A model generated the notes under the pieces. It saw only the letters and a program-made list of their open reading frames with translations. It ran no database searches and had not been told where the DNA came from. This document shows positions 13,823 to 32,840 of a stretch of 32,914 bases of DNA, in pieces; position 1 is the stretch's first letter; each line of letters begins with the position of its first letter. A program made the translations under genes and the position numbers. The DNA comes from an uncultured Oscillospiraceae bacterium (lineage in GTDB: Bacteria > Bacillota > Clostridia > Oscillospirales > Oscillospiraceae): contig CANPWM010000022.1 of assembly GCA_947584295.1 (NCBI GenBank), positions 1-32,914 on the forward strand, read 5' to 3'.

Positions 13823-14278
13823 ATGAAAGCGATTGCCACTAATCTGTGTAACAACATCCTGGAACGCGGTAGGCACGATAGTATTCGCATCACCCCAATG
13901 AAGTTGCAGAAGTTGCTGTACTATATCTGCCGTGATTACGTTATCGAAACGGGTCAAATGCCAATAGCAGAGCAATTTCAAGTATGGCAATATGGACCGG
14001 TATTAGAATCTGTGTATGGAGAATTCAAAGATTTTGGCGCACGCCCTATCACATCCTTCGCCAAGAATGCAAGCGGACGGTCATATATGGTCAGCGAAGA
14101 TAAAAATCCAATCTTAGCAAGGAGCATTGATATCGTCTGGGCAAGACATAAAGACAAATCTGGCATTACCCTTTCCAGAATGACGCATCAAACCGGTTCC
14201 GGGTGGATGACCGCTTTTCTTGATGGCCGGGACACCATTACAGAGGAGGATATGAAAAATGATACAACAGGAAGATAA
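13823..14278 (+). CDS. Panacea-domain (SocA/DUF4065-like) protein, candidate antitoxin PanA
   Basis: The 151-residue protein has a strong GGGAGG ribosome site before ATG 13823. It carries the DUF4065/Panacea pattern: an N-terminal helix AIATNLCNNILERG, ITPMKLQKLLYYICRDYVI near residue 25, then FQVWQYGPVLESVYGEFKDF near 52, and the C-terminal LSRMTHQTGSGWMTAF near 115. Panacea domains neutralise many unrelated toxins, including membrane-active ones, and include the SocA proteolysis adaptor. Its stop codon lies inside the next gene (20-base overlap), so the two are translationally coupled. That pairing, plus the small membrane protein downstream, supports an antitoxin role. A phage- or element-encoded adaptor is the alternative. 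Confidence 0.85.
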   Translation: MKAIATNLCNNILERGRHDSIRITPMKLQKLLYYICRDYVIETGQMPIAEQFQVWQYGPVLESVYGEFKDFGARPITSFAKNASGRSYMVSEDKNPILARSIDIVWARHKDKSGITLSRMTHQTGSGWMTAFLDGRDTITEEDMKNDTTGR

Positions 14279-15306: not shown

Positions 15307-15329
15307 ATCTTTAGATGGAGGTGATCGTC

Positions 15330-16541
15330 TTGGTTTACAGACCTATGTATGTAGATAGGATCATGGCCTATGTGGACACGCCCTTTGTGAAGGTGTTGAC
15401 AGGTGTTCGTCGCTGTGGGAAGTCCACCATATTGAAAATGATTATGGAAAAACTACGGGTGGAAGGGAATATCCCTGACGACCGGATCATAAGCCGCCGT
15501 TATGATTCGATGGAATATGCGGATATGACGGCAAAACAGATGTATGCCGAACTGAAGCAACTCCTATCCCCCACCGGCAGAACGTATTTGTTTCTTGATG
15601 AGGTGCAGGAGATCAATGGCTGGGAAAGGGTCGTCAATTCACTTGCCTCAGATCATAATGTGGATCTATATGTGACAGGCTCCAACTCCCGCATGATGTC
15701 CTCAGAGATATCTACATATCTGACAGGCAGATATGTCACTTTTCGCATCTACACGCTCTCATTTGCTGAGTACCTGAAGTTCAAGGAAATATACAGCTCT
15801 GTAGCGGACCCAAGGACAGAACTGGCGGAATATGTTCGCTTGGGCGGATTCCCAGCAACGCATCTGCGGAAGTATTCTCAGGATGAAATATATACCATCG
15901 TGCGGGATATATACAATTCTACCATTTTTGCCGACATTGTGCGGCGCAATCAGGTAAGAAAGATCGACCAGCTGGAGCGGGTTGTCAAATTCACATTCAA
16001 CAATGTAGGCAATACTTTTTCCGCGAAGTCTATCTCGGATTACTTGAAATCAGAGAACCGGAAAATCGACAACGAGACCGTGTATAGCTATCTGGAAAAG
16101 CTGGAGAAAGCGTATTTGCTTCACCGCTGTTCCAGGTACGACATACAAGGCAAGGAACTGCTGAAAACGCAGGAGAAATTTTATCTTGCGGATACGTCCT
16201 TGAGATACAGTGTTTTAGGCTACAATGCCGATACAGTCGCTGCGAGCCTTGAGAACATTGTCTACTTGGAACTCTGCCGCAGAGGTTACACTGTCCATAT
16301 TGGGAAAACCAATGATGGAGAGATAGATTTCATAGGCACAAGGCCGAATGAAAAGCTCTATGCTCAGGTCACCCAGGAGGTCCGTTCCGAGAAAGTTGAA
16401 AAACGTGAATATCATCGCCTGCTTGAAATACATGACAACTATCCCAAATATGTATTAAGGGCGGATGAGTTTGCAGGAGGAAACTACGAGGGCATAAAAA
16501 CGATGCATATAGCCGATTTTCTTCTCAGTTCGGAGTATTAA
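15330..16541 (+). CDS. AAA-family ATPase with DUF4143 C-terminal domain
   Basis: The start is chosen at TTG 15330, seven bases after GGAGG in GGAGGTGATC. The ATG at 15315 would overlap the ribosome site itself. The 403-residue protein begins VYRPMYVDRIMAYVDTPFVK. It has Walker A GVRRCGKST (residues about 25-33), Walker B YLFLDEVQ (about 86-93) and a sensor-type VTGSNS near 115 (AAA_14). The DUF4143 domain covers about 190-350 and includes the nuclease-like tail AASLENIVYLELCRRGYTVH ... GEIDFIG, which matches the D/E-x-D core of restriction-like folds. Members of this family are abundant in Clostridia and archaea; their cellular role is not established. The gene is monocistronic and sits among mobile remnants. 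Confidence 0.9.
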   Translation: MVYRPMYVDRIMAYVDTPFVKVLTGVRRCGKSTILKMIMEKLRVEGNIPDDRIISRRYDSMEYADMTAKQMYAELKQLLSPTGRTYLFLDEVQEINGWERVVNSLASDHNVDLYVTGSNSRMMSSEISTYLTGRYVTFRIYTLSFAEYLKFKEIYSSVADPRTELAEYVRLGGFPATHLRKYSQDEIYTIVRDIYNSTIFADIVRRNQVRKIDQLERVVKFTFNNVGNTFSAKSISDYLKSENRKIDNETVYSYLEKLEKAYLLHRCSRYDIQGKELLKTQEKFYLADTSLRYSVLGYNADTVAASLENIVYLELCRRGYTVHIGKTNDGEIDFIGTRPNEKLYAQVTQEVRSEKVEKREYHRLLEIHDNYPKYVLRADEFAGGNYEGIKTMHIADFLLSSEY

Positions 16542-16648: not shown

Positions 16649-17409
16649 ATGTCCGAGAAGATCGCTACATCTGAACAAGGAAGTAATCAACGGCCAGATC
16701 AAAGAATTGCCGAGAGTGTGAAAGAAACGCTCAGCGAGCTACTAGAGGCAGAAGCTGAGAAGCTGACACAGGCGATCCGTAGCGAGCGGAACAGAGCCCG
16801 CCTGGCAACTATGATAGAAACCTTACCACGACCTCTGGCAACGTCACGCTGCATGTGCCACACCTGAAGGGCGTTTCATTCGAGATGGCCATCATAGAGT
16901 GGTACCGCCGCGGGAGAGCAGCGTAGAGGAATCTCTCATAGAGATGTACGTGGCAGGCGTCTCTGTACGCCGGGTGGAGGATGATATAACGGAAGCTCTC
17001 TGGGGGACGAAAGTCTCACTGTCCACGAACAGCGAGTTAAACAAGAAAGTGAGAACGTAGCCATTCTGGTCGCGATCGCAGTCATCGAAGACGGTTACCG
17101 TGAAGTCCTGGGCGCCGCCGAGGGGATGAAAGAGGACAAATCTAGCTGGGTGAGCTTCTTCCAGTGGCTCCGCGGCTACGGGCTGGACGGTGTGAAACTC
17201 ATTATTGGGGACAAGTGCCTGGGGATGCTGGAGGCTGTGGGTGAAGTATACCCAGACGCTAAGTACCAGCACTGCACCGTCCACTTTTACCGAAACGTCT
17301 CCTCTGTCATTCCCAGAGGCAAGATAAAAACGGTAGCCAGGATCCTCAAGGCGATTCATGCCCAAGAGAGCAAGTCCGCCTGCTGGAAGAAGATACATCC
17401 TTGCAATTG
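16649..17409 (+). mobile_element. IS256-family transposase relic (several frameshifts, internal and 3' deletions)
   Basis: ATG 16649, behind GAAAGGAGAAAG, opens a frame with the IS256 N-terminal pattern KETLSELLEAEAEKLTQAIR and SERNRARLAT. Further pieces appear in shifted frames: NLTTTSGNVTLHVPHLKGVS, FEMAIIEWYRR, EESLIEMYVAGVSVRRVEDD, ITEALWGTKVS, then (VAILVAIAVIEDGYREVLGA, AEGMKEDKSSWVSFFQWLRG, VKLIIGDKCLGMLEAVGEV, HCTVHFYRNVSSVIP, ILKAIHAQES). The segment between LNKKV and ENVAIL, about 35 residues that normally hold the first catalytic Asp (YLDG), is missing. The second Asp region (IIGDKCLGM) remains. The third catalytic Glu is beyond the truncated 3' end. The element cannot transpose. 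No terminal inverted repeats were identified. Confidence 0.75.
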
Positions 17410-17435
17410 AAATTGAGAAAGGAATATGATATCAT
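17407..17435 (+). promoter_or_regulatory. Candidate promoter for the biosynthetic operon
   Basis: TTGAAA (17407-17412) and TATCAT (17430-17435) have a 17-base spacing. They lie at the broken end of the IS256 relic, about 185 bases before the first gene of the operon. No better match was seen in the 209-base gap. Confidence 0.4.
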
Positions 17436-17619: not shown

Positions 17620-20304
17620 ATGAGGTTGCCAAAGACAAAAAGATCTAAAAAGCTATTAAGTCACATACTGTTTGCTTTTTTGATTATGATCCTCTTGGCA
17701 TTGATTCTTTTGCGATGTAATGAGGCCGGAGTTGTGCATTTTCCGGAGAATTGGCTCACGGAACTGCCTCATACAGCCAAGAAACTATTTTTAAGCATTA
17801 AATTTACCGGCGGTTTTGACGACGATCAAAGAAGCACGCTTTGGCCGCTTCTGGTATCGTTAATTATCGCGATGGTGGGCAGCCTGATCACAACGTACGT
17901 GTTTTTGAAGAGCGCGCTGGATCGAACTGCAGATGAAAAACCGTACTTCCTGGCGGTCATCAGAAAATACCGCGAGGAAACAGTCAAGAAATTGTGGCGA
18001 TATACCGTTTTTTCACTGGTCCTTATCACGCTCGTTGTAGTTTTATACGCGCTGTTTTATTTCGTGGAAATACGGTTTTCCGCGGTCGTTCGCGTCCTGC
18101 TTATATTCGCATATTTGGCGGGCCTGGCGGGAGCGGCGTATGTTTTGCATAAGTGCATTGATATCGACCGGGGCCTGGATACTACGGCGAAAAATCTGCT
18201 GGATGAGAAAATACAACATGACCTGAAAGATATAAATATATGCGTTCTGCCCATAAGGTCCTGTATGAAGCGGCTGGGGCTGATCTCGGAAGACCAGATC
18301 AAATGGCTCCAGATAGAAAAACGCGAAGGTGATAAGAAGTACATAATAGATAAAACGAAATTGATCGCGAGATTTTCGGAATGGGAAAAATTCACGCGGA
18401 TGCTCACAGGGCCGGACGGGATGCCGATCGACGAGCGGTCCATGCGCGAACTGATCACGGCATCTGTAGAGAAGGGGATGCAGATATTCAGCGGCACAAA
18501 CGGCGATATCGAGGACCGCGACGCAAAGGCCAACCGGTGGGATACGGATGCGTATAAGAATATCCAACTGTGCAGACGGGAGCTGGCCATGTCAGGGGCA
18601 AGCTTTGGAAGGGCTTTCGCCCTTTTGTCGGAGTGCCGCAATCTGCTCCTGGTGTTGTCTGATCTGGAACAGACGCCGAAGGACGGAAAGCAGGATAATA
18701 ATAATTTCATCGCCGGAAAAGATAGCGAATTATCAGACATATTCTTCTATTTTCTAATCTGTCTGTCCGTGGAGGTTTTTCGTATCCTCCCCAAGATCAC
18801 AGTTTTCTTTCCGGCAGGTCGGTTTGACGCAGCGGACTTCTACGGCGTACGGTTTGAAGACTCTTCTTTTCGGTCGTCCTCTTTTACAAACGCTGTGTTT
18901 ACCAGGGCGAAGATAAACAACAGCAATTTCAGTATATCTAAATTTACCCACTGCCTATTCTTCAATACGGACAGCCGCAACTGCTCTTTTAGCAACACCT
19001 TATTGGAGAAGTGCGACTTTCAGGAGGCGGTGTTTGACGATGTGGATTTTACAGGCGCGGAGTTGACCGATTGCGATTTGAGAAAGGCTTCTTTCCAAAA
19101 TTCTTTTTTGGTCAATCTCGTGTTGAAAGATACCGCGCTCGGCGAAAACGAGTTTCTTGATTCGAAGATCGGAAATGTTTTTCTGACGTACGGAGGGGAA
19201 ACGCCGCCGTCCTTTAAAAATTGTAATTTTACAAATTCCAGCCTCACCGAAATACGTCTATATTGCAAGGGGTTACTGGATGAGCGCGATCATACAGGCG
19301 ATAATTGGCAGATAAAAGAATTACATTCTTTTCTTCAGGACAGCGAGCTTCAAGCCAAGTTTTTCCCCGGACCGCAGGAGCAGGAAACTGGTATAAAGGC
19401 ACTGAAAGAGATAGCGGATCCATTCAGTTTTTCCAGCAGTATTTTTGCCGATCCGAAAGAAGGCCGCTTTGCAGACGAGAGCGTTATTCCGATTTGGGCG
19501 TATATCAAGGAAGCGACGCCCATTTCCTGGTCGGAATGCGTATTCCGCCGAACGGTCATGCCGGGATTTCGTTTTTTCAAGGCGAATCTGGATCAGAGTG
19601 TGTTTGATGACGCGCAAATCAATAACGCGGCGTTTTTCTGTGTCTATATGCCCGGATGTCTCATGCGCGGCGTGAATCTGAGAGAGGCCTTGCTTTTGGC
19701 GGTCGTCATGAAAAGCGTGATATTGGATGACGCTATCTTTTTTAAATCTACATGCAAAATTGTGAATTTTGAGGACGCCTCCCTGCGGCACCTGCACGCA
19801 TCCGAGGCGTTTTTGCAGTACTGTTCGTTTAGCCGAAGCGATTGCAGCAATATAGACTTTACCCGAGCACAAATCCGGGATTCTGCTTTTAGGGACGCGA
19901 TTTTAACAGGGGCGGAATTGACGGAATCACAATTTAAGAACGCGACGCTCGTCAACAGCGTGGCCGATCAAATGCTGGCGTCTTATACGATGTTCGAGGG
20001 ATGTAGTTTTTTGAACGCGGATCTGTCGCAGTCCAATTTGAATTATGCCGAGTTTAGAAACTGCGCGTTCGGACTGGCCGATTTTTCCGATTGTACGGTC
20101 ACAGGCGCCAGGTTTGAAGAATGCGACTTTAACAACAGCAATTTTCGCGGCAGCTGTTTCGTTCAGGCAGTGTTTGTAAACTGCGAGAACCTGTCTGTGG
20201 AAATTTTCGAAGAATGCATGTTTATTCAATGCAGTTTTTTGGAAAGAAACGAGGACTTTGGAAAGGACCTGAGCGGCAGCCGCAAGGTCAGGGTCGTTGA
20301 ATAG
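17620..20304 (+). CDS. Membrane-anchored pentapeptide-repeat protein
   Basis: The 894-residue protein starts at ATG 17620 after AAAGGAATTGAGATA. Four hydrophobic segments lie at about 12-32, 75-97, 128-149 and 153-176, followed by a mostly helical cytosolic part up to about 395. Two blocks of pentapeptide repeats (A/C/S-x-F/L-x-x) follow at about 398-545 and 628-885, with runs such as FDAADFYGVRFEDSSFRSSS and NADLSQSNLNYAEFRNCAFG. They predict two right-handed quadrilateral helices split by a 80-residue insert. Soluble pentapeptide proteins such as Qnr, MfpA and McbG protect gyrase from inhibitors; membrane-fused versions are poorly understood. It is the first gene of the operon, ending 16 bases before the next, so an immunity, scaffold or transport-related role for the pathway product is possible but unproven. 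Confidence 0.85.
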   Translation: MRLPKTKRSKKLLSHILFAFLIMILLALILLRCNEAGVVHFPENWLTELPHTAKKLFLSIKFTGGFDDDQRSTLWPLLVSLIIAMVGSLITTYVFLKSALDRTADEKPYFLAVIRKYREETVKKLWRYTVFSLVLITLVVVLYALFYFVEIRFSAVVRVLLIFAYLAGLAGAAYVLHKCIDIDRGLDTTAKNLLDEKIQHDLKDINICVLPIRSCMKRLGLISEDQIKWLQIEKREGDKKYIIDKTKLIARFSEWEKFTRMLTGPDGMPIDERSMRELITASVEKGMQIFSGTNGDIEDRDAKANRWDTDAYKNIQLCRRELAMSGASFGRAFALLSECRNLLLVLSDLEQTPKDGKQDNNNFIAGKDSELSDIFFYFLICLSVEVFRILPKITVFFPAGRFDAADFYGVRFEDSSFRSSSFTNAVFTRAKINNSNFSISKFTHCLFFNTDSRNCSFSNTLLEKCDFQEAVFDDVDFTGAELTDCDLRKASFQNSFLVNLVLKDTALGENEFLDSKIGNVFLTYGGETPPSFKNCNFTNSSLTEIRLYCKGLLDERDHTGDNWQIKELHSFLQDSELQAKFFPGPQEQETGIKALKEIADPFSFSSSIFADPKEGRFADESVIPIWAYIKEATPISWSECVFRRTVMPGFRFFKANLDQSVFDDAQINNAAFFCVYMPGCLMRGVNLREALLLAVVMKSVILDDAIFFKSTCKIVNFEDASLRHLHASEAFLQYCSFSRSDCSNIDFTRAQIRDSAFRDAILTGAELTESQFKNATLVNSVADQMLASYTMFEGCSFLNADLSQSNLNYAEFRNCAFGLADFSDCTVTGARFEECDFNNSNFRGSCFVQAVFVNCENLSVEIFEECMFIQCSFLERNEDFGKDLSGSRKVRVVE

Positions 20305-20320
20305 ACAGAGAGAGCGGAAT

Positions 20321-21151
20321 ATGTTTTATTGCGGAAAATATATAGATAACTTTGAGTTGGCATTTTCGCAAATGCTGGAGTACTATGGCGTTTCGCCTGT
20401 GCGGCACGTAGACTGTATAGGCCTTCGATGCTTTGGGTTTCGGATGGGCGACAGGGTGAGAGACTGGTTCCGGCCGATGATCTCTTTGCCGGATTCAGTT
20501 TCTGTGCTGTCCGAGGCCGTGCGTATCGAATTTTGCTGTGAAGAGATCGCCTGCCTGGAGCAGCTGCCGGAGCGGGCCGGCGGCTTTGTGCTTGGGCCGG
20601 TAAAAAACGGCCTGACCGCACCGGAGGCCAAAGACTATTACTATGACGGAGACTGCCGGTATTTATTTGTAGAAAAAACCGAACGCGATGAGCTGAAAAT
20701 TTATGACCCGAACGGACTGGCGGGTCTTTGGGTCCGGAGGGACCGCTGGGACCGGGTCCTGCCGTCTCAGCCGATGTTTTGTATTTGGATAGAACGCGAT
20801 CCCCGGCGAGGGACGCATAAATATAAAGATATACGCAGCATATTGCAAGAGGGACTTCGCTATCACAAGAGGATCTGTGAACAGGAGCGTGAACAATTGC
20901 GGCGAGCGTGCCACGCCTATCCGCCAAGCCGGGAAAACATGCTCAGTTTGCAGTACGGCATAAGAAATCTGCTGCTGCAAATGGATAAGGTATTTCTGTT
21001 GGGCGCCTCGGCCGCGGACGGAAAAGCGCAGTTTTTGTCTCAATATCTGGCGGGAAAGCAGGCGTTATATGCGGCGGGCCAACGAGGCGAACCCTGTGCG
21101 CTGCCGGAACTTATCGGCGAAATGTGGAGGATATTGAACCATGTCGGATAG
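20321..21151 (+). CDS. BtrH-N-like (C39-peptidase-like fold) protein lacking the usual Cys
   Basis: The start is ATG 20321, 16 bases after the previous stop; the in-frame TTG at 20297 lies inside the previous gene. The 276-residue product has the layout of the BtrH N-terminal acyltransferase/peptidase-like domain: an N-terminal helix IDNFELAFSQMLEYYGVSPV, then FVLGPVKNGL near 95 (family: GP-x-x-x-G-x-L), YLFVEKTERDELKIYDPNGL near 124-143 (family: H-x-hhh ... hhDPxG). The position where relatives have the nucleophilic Cys, in the first helix, reads IDNFE, and the usual His before the LFV strand is R-Y. It may therefore be a non-catalytic partner of the downstream homologue. The C-terminal third is helical. 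The assignment is based on pattern only and is moderate. Confidence 0.5.
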   Translation: MFYCGKYIDNFELAFSQMLEYYGVSPVRHVDCIGLRCFGFRMGDRVRDWFRPMISLPDSVSVLSEAVRIEFCCEEIACLEQLPERAGGFVLGPVKNGLTAPEAKDYYYDGDCRYLFVEKTERDELKIYDPNGLAGLWVRRDRWDRVLPSQPMFCIWIERDPRRGTHKYKDIRSILQEGLRYHKRICEQEREQLRRACHAYPPSRENMLSLQYGIRNLLLQMDKVFLLGASAADGKAQFLSQYLAGKQALYAAGQRGEPCALPELIGEMWRILNHVG

Positions 21152-22376
21152 ATGCTTTTGGGGCGAGCGGCGCACGGGAGCGTGGGATGGACTTTTTGAA
21201 CAGATCAAAGCGGAGAGTGCTCCGTTCTATCTGTTCCAGGAGGCGATGATAAGGGATAATATCCACGCTCTTCGCCGATATTTTGGAGGCCGGGTCCGGA
21301 TCGCTTACGCCATGAAGGCCAACCCCTGGCTCTGCAAAGCGGCGAGCAGCGCGGCGGAATACATTGAGGTGAGCTCAGGCGGGGAACTGGAGATTTGTGC
21401 CGATCAGGGCATCCCGGGCAATAAACTGATGGCGGACGGCGTGTGGCGGAGCGAGAGAGAGCTACAGAGAGCGCTGGCGCTGGGCGTATCCCGTTTTGGC
21501 GTGAACTCGGTCCGGCAAATGGAGCAGCTGGTCCGTGCTTCAGAGGGCAAAGACCTCCAGGTTTTTTTGCGGGTCACCAGCGGCAACCAATTCGGGATGG
21601 AGCCTTCTGAGGTCCAGACCTGCATGGAGCTGGGACGTTCCCGCGGCAATATTCGGATCAAGGGTTTTCAGTTTTTTCCGGGAACACAGCGCATGGACGC
21701 GCGAAAGGTGGAAAGAGAGTTAGCGTGCCTTGAAAGATGGATCGCGGAATACCAGGAGAATTTGGGTCTTTTCATCGAAGAAATTGAATTCGGAGCGGGA
21801 ATTGGCGTTCCGTACTTTGAAAAAGAAAGAGTGACTGATTATGAACAAGCGCTAGATGCCGTACAGAGTTTTATACATAAGATAACGCGCAGTTGTCAAG
21901 TTACATATGAGGCGGGCCGGATAGTCGCTGCATCTTGCGGTATCTATGTGACGGAGGTCTTTGATGAGAAGTGGAGAGGGGCGCGGAAGATCCTGTTTTG
22001 CATGGGAGGAATAAACCACCTGCGATATCATGGCGGGATCCTTGGGGCGCGCACACCTCGGCTTTTGGGACTCTGCTCGAATCCGGAAGGTACGCCTATC
22101 AACAGCATGATTTGTGGTTCCTCGTGCAGCGAGAGCGATGTTCTGGTGAGAGAATGCTTGAGCCTGGATAAGAATTTTACCATAGGCGACCGGGTCCTGT
22201 TTATGGAAGCAGGGGCATACTCTGGTACTGAGGCATCGAGCTTATTTTTAAGTATGGACCTTCCCCGCGTTTTATTGTATGATGGGAAAGATATCCGCTG
22301 TGTGCGCGATTCGCTGGCAACATACCGCCTGATTAACAATTTAGGAAGTGATTTTCATGAGGGAAACGGGAATTGA
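21141..22376 (+). CDS. Type III PLP-dependent decarboxylase (DapDC/ODC/BtrK-like)
   Basis: The 411-residue protein overlaps the previous gene by 11 bases. The alanine-racemase-type barrel has its PLP lysine K59 in YAMKANP, followed by EYIEVSSGGELEIC (residues about 73-86), HPGQ-like FGMEPSE near 150, and GFQFFPGTQ near 176. The PLP phosphate-binding Gly-rich loop EFGAGIGVPYF lies near 216, EAGR near 258. The second domain carries CGSSCSESDVL (C325, catalytic-type C329, D333) and EAGAYSG near 355. This matches fold-type III amino acid decarboxylases: diaminopimelate, ornithine, and BtrK, which decarboxylates glutamate held on a carrier protein. The carrier gene overlaps its 3' end, so a carrier-bound substrate is likely. 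The exact amino acid cannot be read from the sequence. Confidence 0.9.
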   Translation: MSDRCFWGERRTGAWDGLFEQIKAESAPFYLFQEAMIRDNIHALRRYFGGRVRIAYAMKANPWLCKAASSAAEYIEVSSGGELEICADQGIPGNKLMADGVWRSERELQRALALGVSRFGVNSVRQMEQLVRASEGKDLQVFLRVTSGNQFGMEPSEVQTCMELGRSRGNIRIKGFQFFPGTQRMDARKVERELACLERWIAEYQENLGLFIEEIEFGAGIGVPYFEKERVTDYEQALDAVQSFIHKITRSCQVTYEAGRIVAASCGIYVTEVFDEKWRGARKILFCMGGINHLRYHGGILGARTPRLLGLCSNPEGTPINSMICGSSCSESDVLVRECLSLDKNFTIGDRVLFMEAGAYSGTEASSLFLSMDLPRVLLYDGKDIRCVRDSLATYRLINNLGSDFHEGNGN

Positions 22377-22638
22377 CGAGATTACCGGTCGGGTGATCAA
22401 GATGATAACAAATCGTTTTCAAAATTCACTGGCATATCGAGAGGATGTTCAGATCACAGTGGATACAGAACTCTTCAACGAATTGGAATTTGATTCTCTG
22501 ATGCTGGTCGTGCTCCAGATCGATATTGAAGATGCCTTTCACATACGTTTTGACCCTACGGAGAAAAACTTTCAAGAATTGTTCTCCACCGTCAGATCTC
22601 TAAGCGACTATATAAGAAAGCAGATTGCAATAAAATGA
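22357..22638 (+). CDS. Acyl carrier protein
   Basis: The 93-residue protein starts at ATG 22357, nine bases after AGGAAG; the GTG at 22348 abuts the ribosome site and is less likely. It overlaps the decarboxylase stop by 20 bases. The four-helix carrier pattern is clear: VIKMITNRFQNSL (helix 1), TELFNELEFDSLMLVVLQID (Ser47 in F-D-S-L for the phosphopantetheine arm, start of helix 2), EDAFHIRF, and SLSDYIRKQIA (last helix). It should carry the pathway intermediate as a thioester, loaded by the AMP-forming ligase of the same operon or by another enzyme. No phosphopantetheinyl transferase is encoded in the window, so a host enzyme must activate it. Confidence 0.93.
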   Translation: MRETGIDEITGRVIKMITNRFQNSLAYREDVQITVDTELFNELEFDSLMLVVLQIDIEDAFHIRFDPTEKNFQELFSTVRSLSDYIRKQIAIK

Positions 22639-23795
22639 AGTATAACCAACTGCTTAAACAATTTACATATGAGGTTTATTTGAAGCGACCGATCGTTTCT
22701 CCGGACAGGAGGACGAACTACCGAATTGAACGCGTTAACGGTGGCTTATTATGTGATTTATGGTTTCTTACAGCCGGATGCATGCATGATGCGCAGGGTG
22801 GATGCGTGATGTGCAATTACGGACGGGGCGAGTGTAGCATTGAGCGAAGGGAGTGGGAACGTATCATTGAAGAACTAAAAAGTATTATAAGAAAAATACC
22901 CTTTCCCTTTGAAGATTTTTTGCTCACTCCCAGTGGTAGCATGTTGGATGAACGGGAGGTCCCGCCAACGATGAGGGATATGCTGATCCCTGCTTTGCAT
23001 GGAATACAGACCAAGCGTTTTATTATTGAGACCCGTGCAGACACAGTGACGGACGCGGGTATGGAATTTTTAAGAGAAATCGTTCCAGGCGCTGAAAAGT
23101 ATGTTGAAATTGGCCTTGAATCCAGCAACAACTGGATCCTGAAGCACTGTATCAACAAAGCGTCTACATTTGAAGAATTCTGCACAGCAGTGAACAAGAT
23201 ACATGAGTATGGTATCTGTGTAACGGCTAATGTTGGTCTCGGCTTTCCTTTTATGAGTGAACGGGCCAGCATCATCAATACCATCCAAACGATTCGTGAT
23301 GCATTGGATGCGGGCGCCGACAGCATAGTAGTATTTCCGTATCATATTAAGAAGGGAACATTGCTAGATGTAATGTATCAAAAACAAATGTACCAATGTG
23401 TGTCTTTTTGGGCACTGGTGAAGGTGTTGAATTGCTTCCCGCACGAACGGGACAAGATACAGATTTCGTGGTATAAAGATTATTTCGGGCAAGAGCGATC
23501 CTATATTTACCGCTCTCCATCGACCTGTCCGGCCTGTGAAGGCAAAATCATGAAATATCTGGATGATTACCGGGAAACCCAGAGCGCGGCCTGTGTGGAT
23601 CGGCTAAACCGTTATTCGTGCCAATGCCGAGAGCAATGGGAAAAGACGCTACAAGAACAGCCGGATCATATAGAGATCAAACATGTGGAGCAGTTGTATC
23701 GAAAGCTGGCAGAGTGTTTTAATTTGGATCAGGACCTTCTGGAACGGGAATTGAGCGAAATGAAGCGGGAATTTGAGGGGCAAAAAGTAGGATGA
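22635..23795 (+). CDS. Radical SAM protein with RaSEA/TIGR01210-like CX7CX2C motif
   Basis: The 386-residue protein overlaps the carrier gene by ATGA. The cluster motif is GCMHDAQGGCVMCNYG (C49, C57, C60), a C-x7-C-x2-C spacing rather than the usual C-x3-C-x2-C. I associate this spacing and the GGCxMCxY ending with the Elp3-like group that contains archaeosine-synthesis RaSEA (TIGR01210). FLLTPSGSMLDEREVP near 95 and IIETRADTV near 133 (the SAM-binding ETR) follow, then EIGLESSNNWIL near 158 and NVGLGFPF near 200 fill the remaining barrel strands. Two Cys pairs (TCPAC, SCQC) in the C-terminal part may bind metal. RaSEA cleaves a lysine adduct on tRNA; here the neighbours point instead to a carrier-bound or amidated small molecule as substrate. 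The reaction is unknown. Confidence 0.85.
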   Translation: MKYNQLLKQFTYEVYLKRPIVSPDRRTNYRIERVNGGLLCDLWFLTAGCMHDAQGGCVMCNYGRGECSIERREWERIIEELKSIIRKIPFPFEDFLLTPSGSMLDEREVPPTMRDMLIPALHGIQTKRFIIETRADTVTDAGMEFLREIVPGAEKYVEIGLESSNNWILKHCINKASTFEEFCTAVNKIHEYGICVTANVGLGFPFMSERASIINTIQTIRDALDAGADSIVVFPYHIKKGTLLDVMYQKQMYQCVSFWALVKVLNCFPHERDKIQISWYKDYFGQERSYIYRSPSTCPACEGKIMKYLDDYRETQSAACVDRLNRYSCQCREQWEKTLQEQPDHIEIKHVEQLYRKLAECFNLDQDLLERELSEMKREFEGQKVG

Positions 23796-24679
23796 ACACA
23801 AATTTCACATTAGATGTCGAGAATGAAATCAATAGAATCGTCGCATTTATACGGAATTTCGTAACAGAACATGAACAGGTTGTTGTTCCGGTCTCTGGTG
23901 GATTGGATTCCGATGTTGTTGCGAGGTTGTGCTGCAGAAGCATCGGGAGCGAACGTGTAAAGCTTTTCATTGTAGTCCAGAGCGAAATGGAGGTTAGATT
24001 TCTCCAAAATGCGCGAAATCTGGCCGCAGAATTGTGTGTATCTCTTGCAGAGATCCATTTGGAGCAGGCAAATCAGAGCTTGATGGAGGCGCTGGAACAG
24101 GGAGAGACGGAAAAGGGTATTTTTCAATCAAAGAGTTTTCTTGACCCGGCAAAAGCAAAATGCTCTATACGGTCTTCGGTGATCTCCTGCTATCAGGATA
24201 AAGGCTTTCTTATTGCGGGTACAACAAATCGAAGCGAAAAGGAGATTGGTCTATTTTTGACCTTTGGCGATAATTTGGCTCATTTCAAGCCAATTGCCCA
24301 TCTCTATAAAACACAATTATACGATCTCGCACGTGCGCTGGGAACGCAAGAGCGTGTGTTATTGCAAGAACCTTCAGCTGGATTCTGGATCGGACAGACA
24401 GATTTGGAAGACATCGCATATTGGATTCTAAATGATGGTCCTGTTGTGTTTCCAAAAGAGTTTTCTGAAGAAGAAAATCACCAGGCGATACAGATAAAAA
24501 GTCTGTTGACACAAGAGAAAATTGATCAGGTTTTGATGATGTATTCTGATGGAGCGGAGGCGGTAAGTATTTCTGTGGAAGTGGAGCTACCGTTTGAGAT
24601 CGTGGAGAGGATCCTCCACATTGTTGAAAAAGCAAAACAACTGAAAAGCAGACCTGTGTTGACAGAACTTCAAAGCTGA
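23792..24679 (+). CDS. Divergent NAD synthetase-like (NadE) ammonia-dependent ligase
   Basis: The 295-residue protein overlaps the radical SAM gene by ATGA. It is an N-type ATP pyrophosphatase: P-loop VSGGLDSDVVAR (S35-S40), KCSIRSSVISCYQ near 125, AGTTNRSEKEIG near 145, FKPIAHLYKTQLYDLARALG near 166 and PSAGFWIGQTDLED near 196. NadE adenylates a carboxylate and amidates it with ammonia. It has no glutaminase domain. Two active-site stretches differ from NadE: the usual GGAD-x-x-P is NLAHFKP, and Q-T-D-E is Q-T-D-L. Together with its place in the operon this suggests a paralogue that amidates a pathway acid rather than nicotinic acid adenine dinucleotide. A housekeeping NadE is less likely but cannot be excluded. 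Confidence 0.85.
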   Translation: MNTNFTLDVENEINRIVAFIRNFVTEHEQVVVPVSGGLDSDVVARLCCRSIGSERVKLFIVVQSEMEVRFLQNARNLAAELCVSLAEIHLEQANQSLMEALEQGETEKGIFQSKSFLDPAKAKCSIRSSVISCYQDKGFLIAGTTNRSEKEIGLFLTFGDNLAHFKPIAHLYKTQLYDLARALGTQERVLLQEPSAGFWIGQTDLEDIAYWILNDGPVVFPKEFSEEENHQAIQIKSLLTQEKIDQVLMMYSDGAEAVSISVEVELPFEIVERILHIVEKAKQLKSRPVLTELQS

Positions 24680-24695
24680 TGATGAGGAAATCCAG

Positions 24696-26117
24696 TTGCT
24701 TTATTATAAACTCATAGAAAAGAATCTTCAGGATCCAAGGATCGTTATTTCTGACGGAGTACGCAGCTTCACCTTTTTGCAGTTGCATCAAAAGGTGATG
24801 GAGTATTATGCGGTTCTTCAGGAAAAGCAGGTAAAAAAGGGAGACCGCGTGCTCGTCATTGAGCAGGAACCAATGGAAATGACCCTCCTTCTGTTGGCCT
24901 GTATTGCAGGAGGATATACGTTTGTGCCGGTAAACAGTCGGCTGGACCCGGAAAGCCAAGAGGTCATTATTCAGGATTGCATGCCAAGGATCGTTATTTC
25001 TGACGGATTGAAGAAGATAGCGCCTGACAGTCCCGCCACACATATCCGGCAGCGAAGCTTGTGTGGGGAAGATACATTGGTATATCTGATTTATACGTCG
25101 GGATCAGACGGAATACCGAAAGGCGTCGTTGCAAAACAGAAGCAAGTGCTTTTTTGTGCCAATGCAATCAATAAACGCTTGTGTCATGGACGGGATGACA
25201 GGATTCTTTGCTGTCTTCCCATTTCTTTTGATTACGGTATGTATCAAGTTTTTTTAGCTTTCCTAAGCGGAGCTGTCCTATATCTTGACAGCGGGTATGT
25301 TGTGCAAAAAATACCGCACCTAATCAAGAATTGGGGAATCTCAGAACTACCGACCATTCCAACAGCTGCAAATCTTTTGATAAGAGCGGGAATGCTCAAC
25401 CAGGATACACAGAGCACATTACGCCGCATAACCTTTACCGGTGAGGTCCTTTCAGAGTCTTTGATTAGGCAGCTCAAAAAGATACTCCCGAATGTACAGA
25501 TCATACCAATGTATGGGCTGACAGAGTGTAAGCGTGTTGCGGTCATGCCACCTGGACGGGACGACAAAGTGCTGTCTGGTTCCTGTGGACTTCCGCTGGA
25601 CGGTGTAACGGTTTGGTTAGAAAATGAAGACCCCGTAACGGGTATCGGAGAACTGGTCGTTGAAGGGGATAACGTTATGGAGGGGTATTGGGGGGCGGCT
25701 AATCAAAATAGCGAGGTATTTTCTCTCGATCCGATAACAGGGAAACGAATTATCCGAACTGGCGACCTTTTTTCAATTGATCAGGAAGGATTTCTTTATT
25801 TTCGTGGGCGAAAAAATGGAATAATTAAGATCCGAGGTTACCGGGTAAGCAACATATGGCTGGAGAATAGACTTCAAAATTTCACAGGTGTCCTTGAGAC
25901 GGCTGTAATAGGTATTCCGGATGTTCTTTCAGGTGAAAAGGCAGCCATATTTGTATCTGTGATCTCCGATGTCACGGAAAACGCGGTAAGAGCGGAGCTT
26001 AAATCCCTTCCAAATTATCTGTGGGACTCAAAAATCTTTATTTTTCATGAGCCTCTTCCCAGGAACCAGAATGGAAAAATCAATAGGAATCAGTTACGAA
26101 GAATGACTGAAGGTTAG
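24696..26117 (+). CDS. AMP-forming acyl/aminoacyl ligase (ANL superfamily adenylation enzyme)
   Basis: The 473-residue protein starts at TTG 24696, behind GATGAGGA; no nearby ATG fits. ANL core motifs are in order: YTSGSDGIPKGVV (A3, about 133-145), CCLPISFDYGMYQVFLAFLS (A4 region), TGEVLS near 250, MYGLTECKRV (A5, near 272), RTGDLF (A7 region), GRKNGIIKIRGYRV (A8), and the C-terminal lysine K461 in PRNQNGKINR (A10). All catalytic positions are present. A long YTSGS..FDYG pattern is typical of stand-alone NRPS-type adenylation and exosortase-associated acyl-CoA ligases. It should activate an acid or amino acid and load it on the carrier protein four genes upstream. Substrate specificity cannot be read with confidence. 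An exact 24-base internal repeat encodes PRIVISDG twice. Confidence 0.9.
   Translation: MLYYKLIEKNLQDPRIVISDGVRSFTFLQLHQKVMEYYAVLQEKQVKKGDRVLVIEQEPMEMTLLLLACIAGGYTFVPVNSRLDPESQEVIIQDCMPRIVISDGLKKIAPDSPATHIRQRSLCGEDTLVYLIYTSGSDGIPKGVVAKQKQVLFCANAINKRLCHGRDDRILCCLPISFDYGMYQVFLAFLSGAVLYLDSGYVVQKIPHLIKNWGISELPTIPTAANLLIRAGMLNQDTQSTLRRITFTGEVLSESLIRQLKKILPNVQIIPMYGLTECKRVAVMPPGRDDKVLSGSCGLPLDGVTVWLENEDPVTGIGELVVEGDNVMEGYWGAANQNSEVFSLDPITGKRIIRTGDLFSIDQEGFLYFRGRKNGIIKIRGYRVSNIWLENRLQNFTGVLETAVIGIPDVLSGEKAAIFVSVISDVTENAVRAELKSLPNYLWDSKIFIFHEPLPRNQNGKINRNQLRRMTEG
24735..24758 (+). repeat. 24-bp direct repeat, copy 1, inside the ligase gene
   Basis: This 24-base segment, encoding PRIVISDG in frame, is identical to 24984-25007. 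It starts CCAAGGATCG and ends TCTGACGGA. Confidence 0.9.
24984..25007 (+). repeat. 24-bp direct repeat, copy 2, inside the ligase gene
   Basis: Exact second copy of 24735-24758, in the same frame, again encoding PRIVISDG. The copies are 249 bases apart, a multiple of three, so recombination between them would remove 83 residues in frame. Confidence 0.9.
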
Positions 26118-26201
26118 AAATGGCAGTTTCTCGCGTGTGTTTTATTGTTACACGGTGCGTTTCATCTATACTTGATACCGCAGGAGAATAGAATCAAGAG
26201 A

Positions 26202-27149
26202 ATGAGATTTTATGGGAACCAGGTGTGTTGTGGAAGCTATGCCTGTCTGAACGCGATAAAGGATCGCACGGTCGATGTGATCCTATTTGAGATATCTACA
26301 TTGTCCCCGTTTGGCGTCAAACACGTTAGGAATCCAAAATATGACCGGCTGCTGACAACTTATTTTGATCCCAACCAGGGAATTGATAACGCGTTGAAGC
26401 TATGGGGGTATTATGTATCTACAGAGCATGTGACATCTGCACGGGAAGCGATACAGGCGTTAAAAAAGTGTTTGTCAAAGCAATGCGACGTTATTCTTGG
26501 GCCGCTCAATATGGGTAGTCTGGCATACCATATCATACCGGAACTATTGATGAGGATGGATCACTATATTACGATCGAATACTATTCTGAATCGGAAATT
26601 CTATGCACAGATTCTGAGGGTATCCATCAGCTACGCCTGAGTTATGAACAGTTGCAGGACTATATATCAGTAGAAGATCTGCCGGAGGCGGAAGGGAAAA
26701 TTGCCCTTCGCACAATAAAAAAAGAGAGGAATCACGATTTGAACATTATCTTATCTGATTCTTTGGAAGGCGCATATCGTAACCTCTATCGCGCGGAAGA
26801 AAGCGGTCAAGGTTCACATGCGATCTATGATTGTGTCGCGTTTCTCAAAGAGCAGGAAATGTTTCGTTGGAAACTCCCTTTCTTATATGATTTGGAGTAT
26901 TTTGGGCAAAGAAAGAATCAAACGCGATGGTTCCTTGAAACACTTCAAAAGAATAAGATCATTTCTTCATTATGCGCCATGCCGCTTCAGGATATCATCT
27001 TGCGGCAAGAAAAGCTGATAGGTCTGGTATATCAGGAGCTTCGATGGAAAAATCGTTTCAATGATAAGGCCCTACAAACAGTGGGAGATCTGGAAAGAGA
27101 CTTACAAAATGGCATTCGCAATTGCCTAAAACGCAACGATTTATTGTAA
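26202..27149 (+). CDS. BtrH-N-like acyltransferase/peptidase-fold protein with Cys
   Basis: The frame is open from TTG 26145, but ATG 26202 (315 residues) is preferred because the family begins directly with this segment. The ribosome site is unclear: AGGAG lies 15 bases upstream and AAGAG adjoins the ATG. The N-terminus MRFYGNQVCCGSYACLNAI carries the probable nucleophile (C10 by position). ILGPLNMGSLAYH near 100 and HYITIEYYSESEILCTDSEG near 121-140 match the GP-x-x-x-G-x-L and H-x-hhh ... D-x-x-G parts of BtrH_N domains. BtrH transfers the acyl side chain from its carrier protein to the aminoglycoside acceptor in butirosin biosynthesis. Here it closes the operon, 84 bases after the ligase, and is the best candidate for off-loading the carrier-bound product. 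The second half is helical and unassigned. Confidence 0.6.
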   Translation: MRFYGNQVCCGSYACLNAIKDRTVDVILFEISTLSPFGVKHVRNPKYDRLLTTYFDPNQGIDNALKLWGYYVSTEHVTSAREAIQALKKCLSKQCDVILGPLNMGSLAYHIIPELLMRMDHYITIEYYSESEILCTDSEGIHQLRLSYEQLQDYISVEDLPEAEGKIALRTIKKERNHDLNIILSDSLEGAYRNLYRAEESGQGSHAIYDCVAFLKEQEMFRWKLPFLYDLEYFGQRKNQTRWFLETLQKNKIISSLCAMPLQDIILRQEKLIGLVYQELRWKNRFNDKALQTVGDLERDLQNGIRNCLKRNDLL

Positions 27150-29850: not shown

Positions 29851-30096
29851 CTATGCCTTTTTGAGCAGAGCGGTAACACATGAGGAGCAGACATTCTTTC
29901 CTTTATAACTGGTGAGGTCTTTATAACTGTTGCAGAATACGCAGGCCGGCTGATGCTTTTTAAGTATGACCGTATCCTCGGCCATGTAAACCTCCAGGGG
30001 ATCACGCACCGCGATATCCATGGTACGGCGCAGCTCAATAGGCAACACGATGCGGCCCAGTTCATCCACCTTTCGGACGATTCCAGTTGACTTCAT
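29851..30096 (-). CDS. AbrB/MazE/SpoVT-family DNA-binding protein with C-terminal zinc ribbon
   Basis: The start is ATG 30096, six bases after GGAGG; the frame is open further up, but without a ribosome site. The 81-residue protein has the swapped-hairpin SpoVT/AbrB domain, STGIVRKVDELGRIVLPIEL then RRTMDIAVRDPLEVYM and VILKK (residues about 3-50). A zinc ribbon with CVFC and CSSC pairs follows (about 52-76). Small AbrB proteins of this type are transition-state-like regulators or antitoxins and are common on Clostridia mobile elements. No toxin gene is next to it, so a regulator role is more likely. It has its own promoter and terminator. Confidence 0.9.
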   Translation of the reverse strand: MKSTGIVRKVDELGRIVLPIELRRTMDIAVRDPLEVYMAEDTVILKKHQPACVFCNSYKDLTSYKGKNVCSSCVTALLKKA

Positions 30097-30130
30097 GTTA
30101 AACCTCCATATCGCCCCAAGATTTGATATG

Positions 30131-30159
30131 ACGCTATCACATGGAAATGCGTTTGTCAA
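30131..30159 (-). promoter_or_regulatory. Candidate promoter of the AbrB-like gene
   Basis: On the minus strand a consensus TTGACA (30159-30154) is followed after 17 bases by TAGCGT (30136-30131), a weak -10 box, 35 bases upstream of the start codon. Confidence 0.45.
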
Positions 30160-31585: not shown

Positions 31586-31931
31586 TCTATAGGATGAATA
31601 CCCATACCTACTTGTTTTCAGAAAAGATGTGAGTATGGGCATCATAATCGTTCGTCAGGGAGGAACTGGGCACCAGATCCTCCGTCTGAGCATCCTGCAT
31701 TTAACGGGAAGGGGTATCCTCCAGGTTGATGACTCGCTCCCGGGCGCCTTGACCGCGTCCGGTGAGTGCATGTCTACGGCCCCTTGCCGAGGAGGTGATG
31801 GGCTGCTGTGCGGCTTGCTGGATGCTGCTCGGTACAACACTGATGATGCCTGGTATTATATTGGATCCTGCTGGACAAAGAGCAAAGCTGCCTCCATAAT
31901 GTCAAAGAAATACCTTGCTATGGAGGGCGTT
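31586..31931. other. Open but non-conserved stretch before the recombinase
   Basis: The recombinase frame stays open back to 31629, but this 303-base part lacks a ribosome site at its first start, is Gly/Arg/Ser-rich, and shows no recombinase features. I regard it as leader or remnant DNA. Confidence 0.4.
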
Positions 31932-32840
31932 ATGAAACAGATCAACGAGGCCATTAAGACGTATTTGGAAGCCTGCGAACATGAGAAGGAGCTGTCTCCT
32001 CACACGGTAAAAGCGTATCGTATTGATCTTGCACAATTCTCTCAGTTTACAAATGGTACTTGGGCGGAAAAGGATACGCTGAGCGAATACGTCAAGCATT
32101 TGAACACTCACTTTGCGCCGAGATCGGTGAAGCGGAAACTAGCAAGCGTGTGCGCTTTTTATCATGCGTTGGAGCAGAACGGCGAGGTGGAGATCAACCC
32201 TTTCGATAAACTACACATAAAAATACACATGTCCAAACAACTCCCGCGGACGATTCCCGAGCGAACGGTTCAGGATCTTCTGCGATGTGCTTACGAAACA
32301 TATGTTCCAGGGCGTCGAAAGGTCCTGCGGGATATATTTGTATTGGAGCTGCTATTCAGTAGCGGTGCCAGGGTATCCGAGTTGTGCTCTCTTTCCAATA
32401 ACACCTTTTCCGTCGACGCCAGCGATATGAGGATGCTAATCTATGGCAAGGGACGCAAGGAACGTATCATTCACATCACTACTCCGGAACTGCTTCAGCT
32501 TGGGGAAAGATACTGCAAAGAGTATGAGGCCGACATTCAGCGTACAAACACCATTCTAATTAACGACCGAGGGGCTCCGCTCTCGCCGCAGTCTGTAAGG
32601 CGCATTATCAGAAAGTACCTGGCCAAACTTAACACGCAGACTGATATCACCCCGCACATGTTTCGCCATACCTTCGCCACCTCTCTGCTTGAGGCTGGCA
32701 TGGACATTAGATATATTCAGTCATTGCTAGGGCATAGCTCCATATCTACAACGCAGATCTACACGCATGTGGCAGCAGAGCATCAGACTCAGTTGCTGGC
32801 TGAAAAGCATCCACGCGGGAAAATGAGCTTTTCATTGTGA
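31932..32840 (+). CDS. XerC/XerD-like tyrosine recombinase
   Basis: The start is set at ATG 31932, right after GGAGGGCGTT. The 302-residue length fits Xer recombinases (about 300). The N-terminal SAM-like core-binding domain (about 1-85) includes LSPHTVKAYRIDLAQFSQFT. The catalytic domain holds the full set: R147 (SGARVSEL), K in YGKGRKER near 171, H242 and R245 (HMFRHTFAT), H268 (LGHSSI) and Y277 (TTQIYTH). It should catalyse site-specific strand exchange, either as the integrase of the element spanning the right part of the window or as an accessory Xer-like resolvase. No excisionase gene or attachment site was identified nearby. It is followed by a terminator. Confidence 0.93.
   Translation: MKQINEAIKTYLEACEHEKELSPHTVKAYRIDLAQFSQFTNGTWAEKDTLSEYVKHLNTHFAPRSVKRKLASVCAFYHALEQNGEVEINPFDKLHIKIHMSKQLPRTIPERTVQDLLRCAYETYVPGRRKVLRDIFVLELLFSSGARVSELCSLSNNTFSVDASDMRMLIYGKGRKERIIHITTPELLQLGERYCKEYEADIQRTNTILINDRGAPLSPQSVRRIIRKYLAKLNTQTDITPHMFRHTFATSLLEAGMDIRYIQSLLGHSSISTTQIYTHVAAEHQTQLLAEKHPRGKMSFSL

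What the first reader, a model, noticed from the sequence alone, without database searches (positions are those of the whole stretch)
17620..27149. Eight-gene operon that looks like an undescribed carrier-protein-based biosynthetic pathway
Seen: eight same-strand genes, five with overlapping or ATGA-type junctions and the rest 16-84 bases apart. They encode a pentapeptide-repeat membrane protein, BtrH-like protein, PLP decarboxylase, ACP, radical SAM, NadE-like ligase, AMP-forming ligase and a second BtrH-like protein. Known: in butirosin biosynthesis BtrI (ACP), BtrK (PLP decarboxylase) and BtrH (acyl transfer) build and transfer a side chain, and decarboxylase + ACP + AMP-ligase trios also occur in exosortase-A loci. 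Inference: the operon makes an ACP-tethered, decarboxylated, amidated and radical-modified acid that is passed to an acceptor. I know of no described pathway that combines a RaSEA-like radical SAM and a NadE paralogue with this trio.
Basis: partly seen in the sequence, partly recalled or inferred. Interest (0 to 1): 0.9.

Follow-up and report, generated by a model that had tools for sequence, protein, structure and literature searches.

The report
Undescribed carrier-protein biosynthetic gene cluster
An eight-gene bacterial operon belongs to a rare but widely scattered gene cluster that appears to build a small molecule on a carrier protein; relatives carry a protection-type gene like those of producers of DNA-targeting antibiotics, so it may make an unknown antibiotic.

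Summary
In detail: eight same-strand genes at 17620-27149 with the stated families. The set is conserved. One scan with the radical SAM protein found 12 orthologous loci (L015-L026); ten keep B-H in order, one is cut by its contig end, one (L025) has G-H moved to the cluster's other end. A 13th locus is on a phage-like contig (L095). None of 68 other RaSEA-like loci has B, C, D, G or H. The decarboxylase's best solved relatives are BtrK. Models of both 'BtrH-like' proteins match CtaG, CcbD and AziU2-U3; H keeps a Cys-His-Asp triad, B lacks it. F is a dedicated NadE paralogue (13 of 13 genomes have another NadE). Class I (7) carries the pentapeptide protein in 6, the seventh being truncated; class II (7) carries in-cluster UvrA paralogues lacking the UvrB-binding stretch in 7 of 7, and KAS III. 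I read this as a non-canonical thiotemplated natural-product cluster, possibly DNA/gyrase-targeting. Product, step order and target are inferred. MIBiG/antiSMASH were not available.

The parts
17620..20304 (+). A: pentapeptide-repeat protein, 894 aa, about four predicted N-terminal membrane segments, pentapeptide runs about 397-497, 657-707, 752-852; candidate self-protection or membrane component, class I only
   Evidence: Pfam PF13599/PF00805; hydropathy and repeat runs by a simple script; syntenic homologue in L015 (cut by contig start), L017, L018, L019, L020
20321..21151 (+). B: CtaG/CcbD-fold protein without conserved catalytic Cys/His; likely non-catalytic partner (ORF can open at TTG 20297)
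21141..22376 (+). C: PLP decarboxylase, closest solved relative BtrK (L-glutamyl-BtrI decarboxylase)
   Evidence: PDB profile search 7ru7 1.2e-76 and 2j66 2.9e-76 rank first; K59, C325, C329, D333 invariant in 12 of 12
22357..22638 (+). D: stand-alone acyl carrier protein
   Evidence: PF00550; D44-S45 invariant in 12 of 12
22635..23795 (+). E: RaSEA-like radical SAM enzyme, CX7CX2C plus C-terminal CX2C and CXC cysteines
   Evidence: TIGR01210 155 bits, under cut-off; seven cysteines invariant in 13 of 13; own clade 96/93 apart from archaeal RaSEA
23792..24679 (+). F: NadE-type ammonia-dependent PP-loop amide ligase, paralogue of housekeeping NadE
   Evidence: TIGR00552 113 bits; PDB best 2e18 NAD synthetase; second NadE at G000:C27; SGGxDS invariant in 13 of 13
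24696..26117 (+). G: AMP-forming acyl/aminoacyl ligase
   Evidence: PF00501; TIGR03098 best but under cut-off; G460-K461 invariant in 12 of 12
26202..27149 (+). H: CtaG/CcbD-type transferase with Cys-His-Asp triad (ORF can open at TTG 26145)

Best explanation
The operon is a non-canonical thiotemplated (stand-alone carrier protein) natural-product cluster. Ligase G activates an amino or dicarboxylic acid and loads it on the ACP D. BtrK-like C decarboxylates the carrier-bound aminoacyl group. RaSEA-like E carries out a radical step and NadE-type F an ATP- and ammonia-dependent amidation. H transfers the acyl group from the ACP to an amine acceptor through its Cys-His-Asp triad, with its catalytically dead paralogue B as partner. 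A protects or serves the producer. Shown here: family membership, invariant catalytic residues, fold of B and H, conservation of the set, F beside another NadE. Inferred: substrates, order of steps, B-H partnership, role of A, product. Further inference, about 0.35: the product acts on DNA or a topoisomerase, because class II clusters carry a UvrA paralogue of the self-resistance type and class I a pentapeptide-repeat protein. (I had this at 0.4 before one search showed UvrA paralogues of similar build outside the cluster in some class I genomes.)
For: Twelve loci in Lachnospiraceae and other Clostridia, Vallitalea and Bacteroides, plus L095, share C-H; B is seen in 11 of the 12 (one weakly). 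Control: 0 of 68 other RaSEA-like loci have B, C, D, G or H. Gene distances covary in 21 of 21 gene pairs, rho 0.29-0.87, at most 32 of 2000 permutations as high (10 of 13 members used). C: BtrK ranks first among solved structures. H and B: CtaG, CcbD, AziU2-U3 fold; His-Asp spacing 16 in H, as in CtaG H128-D144 (variant names). F beside a second NadE in 13 of 13 genomes. In-cluster short UvrA lacking housekeeping residues 124-263 in 7 of 7 class II; UvrA-like self-resistance proteins lack the UvrB-binding domain (PMC10413001, passages). Closthioamide uses carrier proteins, transferase CtaG, decarboxylase CtaF and a PP-loop enzyme CtaC (PMC6772006, passages).
Against: No product, substrate or assay. 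E and G score under the curated cut-offs of their nearest families, C and G under those of the exosortase trio. B hits no model and its CtaG Z (13.9) is modest, 3.7 above unrelated PCAT1 rows. B was not found in L095 even with its profile. A is membrane-bound, unlike Qnr/MfpA, far under their cut-offs, and not seen in the class II stretches. Class I has no in-cluster UvrA, and three class I genomes (G000, G788, G790) hold an 841-844-aa UvrA paralogue on another contig that also lacks most of the UvrB-binding stretch, so that build alone is not specific to such clusters. No exporter was recognised in the window operon. The window (GC 0.48) sits in a genome whose sampled stretches average 0.58-0.67: a foreign island, or a mis-binned contig.
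Confidence: 0.65

Rival explanations
1. The operon modifies a cell-surface or membrane component: the decarboxylase-ACP-ligase trio, as in exosortase-A loci, makes an aminoacyl group that H attaches to a surface amine, with membrane protein A as platform or acceptor.
For: C and G have TIGR03099 and TIGR03098 as best NCBIfam hits; A has membrane segments and is conserved in class I.
Against: Both under curated cut-off; BtrK ranks first among solved structures; class II shows no A and carries UvrA and KAS III, with an MFS efflux gene in L023/L104 and L024; the set is rare and patchy.
Confidence: 0.14
2. A nucleoside, tRNA or cofactor modification pathway: RaSEA and NadE homologues act in archaeosine or NAD metabolism and the carrier protein supplies an aminoacyl donor.
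For: E is RaSEA-like with the same CX7CX2C motif; NadE genes sit next to RaSEA in Thermoplasmata loci.
Against: No ArcTGT, ArcS or Que gene among the eight; E is its own clade; 13 of 13 genomes keep another NadE; CtaG, CcbD and AziU2-U3 belong to natural-product pathways.
Confidence: 0.08
3. The cluster is biosynthetic, but A is a membrane scaffold or export factor and not immunity, and the class II UvrA serves another end; the product does not act on DNA.
For: A has membrane segments; no other exporter recognised in the class I operon; Qnr/MfpA cut-offs not met; similar UvrA paralogues exist outside the cluster in three class I genomes.
Against: UvrA lies inside the cluster in 7 of 7 class II members, each lacking the same 140 residues; pentapeptide proteins also sit beside RaSEA-like genes in L010, L102 and L103.
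Confidence: 0.35
4. Chance adjacency in a foreign or mis-binned contig, no common function.
For: Low GC, recombinase gene and transposase piece in the window.
Against: Same gene set in 13 further loci and congruent distances.
Confidence: 0.02

Closest known systems
Closthioamide (Cta) non-canonical thiotemplated pathway, Ruminiclostridium cellulolyticum
   Same: stand-alone carrier protein, adenylating loader, decarboxylase, CtaG-fold transferase and a PP-loop ATPase in an anaerobe
   Different: PP-loop enzyme here is NadE-type, not TtuA-like CtaC; RaSEA-like radical SAM and B are extra; CtaF was not compared with C
Butirosin side-chain genes BtrI/BtrK/BtrH
   Different: AMP-ligase instead of an ATP-grasp loader (BtrJ, recalled); radical SAM, NadE and pentapeptide genes are extra; PF14399 (recalled number) not hit
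CcbD (celesticetin) and AziU2-U3 (azinomycin)
   Different: 7-13% identity; CcbD works with an NRPS carrier (entry titles); AziU3/U2 is described as an aziridine synthase (PMC12559475, one passage)
Exosortase-A associated decarboxylase/ligase trio (TIGR03098, TIGR03099)
   Same: same two best-hit families plus ACP
   Different: scores far under cut-off (253 of 592; 151 of 478); no exosortase among the window proteins scanned
RaSEA of archaeosine synthesis
   Same: TIGR01210 best hit and CX7CX2C motif
   Different: under cut-off, separate clade, no tRNA-modification genes in the operon
UvrA-like self-resistance (DrrC, Ecm16, MtrX)
   Same: class II in-cluster UvrA paralogues lack the stretch where UvrB binds
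   Different: found in class II clusters only; the window has a pentapeptide protein instead; not compared with DrrC or Ecm16 themselves

Membership tests
Closthioamide-type non-canonical thiotemplated pathway | stand-alone carrier protein and adenylating ligase | tested here: met
   PF00550 and PF00501; invariant Ser and Lys
Closthioamide-type non-canonical thiotemplated pathway | CtaG-fold transferase with Cys-His-Asp | tested here: met
Closthioamide-type non-canonical thiotemplated pathway | CtaC-like (TtuA-type) Fe-S PP-loop thioamide synthetase | tested here: not met
   F is NadE-type, TtuA model 12 of 450 bits; only one invariant Cys in F
Butirosin side-chain pathway | BtrK-type decarboxylase | tested here: met
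   BtrK structures rank 1 and 2 among 177,635 distinct PDB sequences
Butirosin side-chain pathway | ATP-grasp loading enzyme BtrJ | tested here: not met
   no ATP-grasp hit among the eight proteins
Butirosin side-chain pathway | BtrH family (PF14399) acyltransferase | tested here: inconclusive
   B and H give no such hit at E 0.1; BtrH itself not compared by structure
Exosortase-A trio | TIGR03098 and TIGR03099 over curated cut-off | tested here: not met
   253 of 592 and 151 of 478 bits
RaSEA (TIGR01210) | score over curated cut-off | tested here: not met
   155 of 212 bits
RaSEA (TIGR01210) | CX7CX2C cluster motif | tested here: met
   invariant in A6; same spacing in eight of eight archaeal rows examined
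NAD synthetase | NadE domain with SGGxDS | tested here: met
   TIGR00552 113 over 63.65
NAD synthetase | the cell's housekeeping NAD synthase | tested here: not met
   PRK13980 133 of 255 bits; another NadE over cut-off in 13 of 13 genomes
Qnr/MfpA-type gyrase-protecting pentapeptide protein | pentapeptide repeats | tested here: met
   PF13599, PF00805
Qnr/MfpA-type gyrase-protecting pentapeptide protein | score over Qnr or MfpA cut-offs | tested here: not met
   MfpA 55 of 360, Qnr 50 of 240 bits
Qnr/MfpA-type gyrase-protecting pentapeptide protein | protects gyrase | not testable with these tools
   needs a biochemical assay
UvrA-like self-resistance protein (class II clusters, not the window) | UvrA without the UvrB-binding stretch, inside a biosynthetic cluster | tested here: met
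   residues 124-263 missing in 7 of 7; but similar build also outside clusters in G000, G788, G790
MIBiG entry with the same families | same gene set in a characterised cluster | not testable with these tools
   no MIBiG or antiSMASH here; the rows shown name no such cluster

The most novel reading that the evidence does not exclude
The shared B-H cassette makes a hitherto unknown class of DNA- or gyrase-targeting antibiotic in anaerobes, spread between phyla and even onto phage-like DNA, with immunity swapped between a UvrA-type protein (class II) and a pentapeptide protein (class I). E and F, homologous to the radical and PP-loop ends of the archaeosine route, would turn a carrier-bound carboxyl or amide into an amidine or amide by a new radical SAM/NadE chemistry.
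Probability: 0.18. Interest if true: 0.92.

Novelty: new variant of a known kind. Interest (0 to 1): 0.73.

Why it matters
It adds a biosynthetic cluster family without an NRPS/PKS megasynthase among its recognised genes, a kind that I would expect signature-based tools to miss (recalled, not tested). It places RaSEA-like radical SAM enzymes, known from tRNA, and a NadE paralogue in carrier-protein chemistry. It gives two hints at the target (UvrA paralogue without its UvrB-binding stretch; pentapeptide protein) that make the product's target testable. Some member records (Bacteroides sp. 519, L025; Lachnospiraceae bacterium IMSAGC_011, L021) are not marked as MAGs in their titles, so cultured carriers may exist.

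Tried and rejected
Sequence search of H against solved structures found nothing credible (best E 0.003, a G10 protein); only the fold search worked. Plasmids: no match to window E; one remote match to L095 E in Streptomyces plasmid pFRL5, in another gene context. Phages: no match to L095 E (window E not tried there). The first RaSEA-like relatives in family and class (L009-L014 as fetched) had none of B, C, D, F, G, H and belong to other systems. I considered that the archaeal RaSEA-NadE adjacency showed an E-F-like pair; one search showed NAD synthases over the PRK13980 cut-off in L042 and L056, so it is left as a curiosity. X (class II, between E and F) looked KAS-like by eye; no family hit, left unassigned. 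In L095 neither B nor X was found, also not with their profiles.

Corrected on checking: I first took short UvrA proteins to be absent from class I genomes. One search shows that G000 (C1), G788 (C15) and G790 (C36) each hold an 841-844-aa UvrA paralogue, 34-35% identical to the class II one, also lacking most of the UvrB-binding stretch, on contigs other than the cluster's. I lowered the DNA-target inference from 0.4 to 0.35, the best explanation from 0.66 to 0.65 and the novel case from 0.2 to 0.18 for this. L027, one of the 68 control loci, holds a UvrA-like gene beside an rSAM_b-like gene but no B-H.

Limits: one search kept the best 80 of 493 relatives; genome contigs holds no contigs under 3 kb; L016 is truncated, L018's H is a 151-aa ORF (short or broken); the class I/II split rests on 7 and 7 members; the tree is midpoint-rooted and L095_b and L009_y long branches meet. 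Paper searches cover one open library and I saw only the rows listed: 20 of 256, 33 20 of 28, 54 11 of 11, 55 7 of 7, 78 1 of 1, 79 8 of 31, 90 8 of 10, 91 12 of 18, 105 10 of 462, 106 10 of 80. No paper was read whole.
Full report
WHAT WAS CHECKED. The eight ORFs exist at the given coordinates with the given order and strand; junctions and starts are in the observation check. The window is contig 22 of a 2.35-Mb, 94.8% complete draft genome. Eight stretches of other contigs are 57.8-62.5% GC (single 5-kb bins as low as 51.5%) and two gene-sized ones 63-67%; the window is 48.4% and the operon 46.7%, so the window is a foreign island or a mis-binned contig. A tyrosine recombinase (31629-32840) and a Mutator transposase piece (17126-17410) fit an island.

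RARITY. With E as query, 4 of 400 family genomes (own included) matched at 1e-10 and 4 of 391 class genomes (own included) at 1e-20. The six non-self hits are 25-33% identical; in the stretches fetched around them (L009-L014) none of B, C, D, F, G or H was found, and one (L010) has a remote pentapeptide match. The nine other same-genus genomes listed had none. In the family of G797, 3 of 397 genomes matched the E profile at 1e-40, G797 included.

CONSERVED CLUSTER. A single scan of genome contigs with alignment A1 found 493 relatives and kept the best 80. Twelve (L015-L026; E identity 33-60%) are orthologous; the other 68 are 32% or less, largely archaeal RaSEA by their record titles. In the 12: C 12 (partial in L016), D 12, E 12, F 12, G 12 and H 12 (for L025 G and H were found in the further stretch L106; in L018 H is only a 151-aa ORF), B 10 by tblastn plus a weak phmmer hit at the right place in L026; L016 is cut before B. 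Ten (L015, L017-L024, L026) keep B-H in order, class II with X between E and F; L016 keeps C-H; L025 keeps B-F but has G-H at the other end of the cluster. Control: among the 68 other loci, 0 have B, C, D, G or H (tblastn 1e-3; several are short contigs); 38 have some NadE hit, 1 a pentapeptide hit, and L027 has a UvrA-like gene beside an rSAM_b-like gene. A viral-contig scan gave one further locus, L095, with C, D, E, F, G, H in order; B and X were not found there, also with profiles. Pairwise distances of the seven genes agree in 21 of 21 pairs (10 of 13 members; D weakest). In a tree of 37 radical SAM rows, 14 E orthologues form a clade (96/93), class I a clade (100/99) nested among class II, and seven archaeal RaSEA rows a separate clade (100/100) (midpoint root, long branches flagged).

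TWO ARCHITECTURES. Class I (window, L015-L020; 7 members) is A-B-C-D-E-F-G-H; A is seen in 6 of 7, the seventh contig (L016) being truncated. Class II (L021-L026 and L095; 7 members) shows no A in the stretches seen and carries further genes (families named from L024): a MoaA/SPASM-like radical SAM 7 of 7, an SbnA/CysK-like PLP enzyme 7 of 7, a methyltransferase 6 of 7 (not seen in L026), X 6 of 7 (not in L095), one or two more RaSEA-like genes in 6 of 7 (none in the cut L021), KAS III 7 of 7, UvrA 7 of 7, an MFS gene in L023 and L024. KAS III relatives at 1e-8: 0 of 7 class I genomes. The class II UvrA genes (743-805 aa; in L026 the first part of a 1522-aa ORF) lack, against a housekeeping UvrA, residues 124-263 (140 aa) and 661-684 in 7 of 7. 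That the first stretch is where UvrB binds is recalled; PMC10413001 (passages) says UvrA-like self-resistance proteins lack the UvrB-binding domain and uses them as markers of DNA-intercalator clusters. Against a simple reading: none of the 7 class I genomes has a UvrA as close (48-64%) as the class II copies are to each other's reference, but G000, G788 and G790 hold 841-844-aa paralogues, 34-35% identical to the class II one, on other contigs, which also lack most of that stretch. So in-cluster position, not build alone, is the argument.

MECHANISM. The families fit a stand-alone carrier pathway like closthioamide, where carrier proteins, adenylating loaders, transferase CtaG, decarboxylase CtaF and PP-loop enzyme CtaC take part (PMC6772006, passages). 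By analogy G loads D, C decarboxylates on D, F amidates, E makes a radical change, H transfers to an amine, B assists. RaSEA turns preQ0-lysine on tRNA into archaeosine (PMC11298593, passages), which carries a formamidine (PMC5485725, abstract start in the listing); that QueC, a PP-loop enzyme, makes the preceding nitrile is recalled. E and F thus resemble two ends of a carboxyl-to-amidine route, which is the basis of the boldest reading and is untested.

TARGET HINT. Pentapeptide proteins serve as self-resistance or protection against gyrase inhibitors (speirobactin, PMC12406682, passages; albicidin and microcin B17 named in the abstract start of PMC7897471, listing). Pentapeptide proteins also stand beside RaSEA-like genes in three other loci, L010, L102, L103. 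Against it: A is membrane-bound and far under the Qnr/MfpA cut-offs.

VERDICT. A real, conserved cluster, not described in the paper rows that I saw, best filed as a new variant of non-canonical thiotemplated natural-product clusters. Chemistry and target remain open and testable.

Noticed in passing
L095, L107, L108 (IMG/VR record, 79 kb): A class II cluster lies on a contig classed as viral; 5 of 9 flanking proteins scanned hit PHROGs, among them a primase, clamp-loader-like proteins and DNA ligases. A phage- or plasmid-borne natural-product cluster would be unusual.
   Followed up: partly
L102:2143-9552 (G1115): A third, smaller variant: pentapeptide protein (opposite strand), RaSEA-like radical SAM, decarboxylase, ACP, ligase and H, without F or B.
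   Followed up: partly
L010 and L103; L009 in part: Another RaSEA-like system: radical SAM near a 764/765-aa protein (ATP-grasp plus radical SAM in L103, the only one scanned), with a pentapeptide protein in L010 and L103. A nitroreductase-like gene was recognised by eye only.
   Followed up: partly
L042, L056, L074 and other archaeal loci: RaSEA genes are followed by a NAD synthase gene that scores over the PRK13980 cut-off in L042 and L056 (the L074 piece is partial). Why they are neighbours is unexplained.
   Followed up: partly
L029, L032, L034, L035: A gene 51-61% identical to parts of F lies near RaSEA-like genes in clostridial drafts; in L032 it is split into two ORFs.
   Followed up: no
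L113:5290-7815, L122:699-3230, L123:538-3072: UvrA paralogues of 841-844 aa, lacking most of the UvrB-binding stretch, away from the cluster in G000, G788 and G790; their role is unknown.
   Followed up: partly
L112 (Streptomyces plasmid pFRL5): A remote RaSEA-like radical SAM gene (22.9% identity to L095 E) sits with P450, SHMT, glycosyltransferase and carbamoyltransferase genes.
   Followed up: no
window 2260-9882: A 2540-aa ORF whose only Pfam match at 0.001 is a C-terminal metallophosphoesterase.
   Followed up: no
window 13823-14278, 15315-16541, 29851-30159: Panacea-domain protein, AAA_14/DUF4143 ATPase and MazE-like antitoxin genes, plus a recombinase at 31629-32840: mobile-island type cargo.
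   Followed up: no
L026:1926-6494: One 1522-aa ORF joins a UvrA-like region with two radical SAM regions: natural fusion or sequencing error.
   Followed up: no
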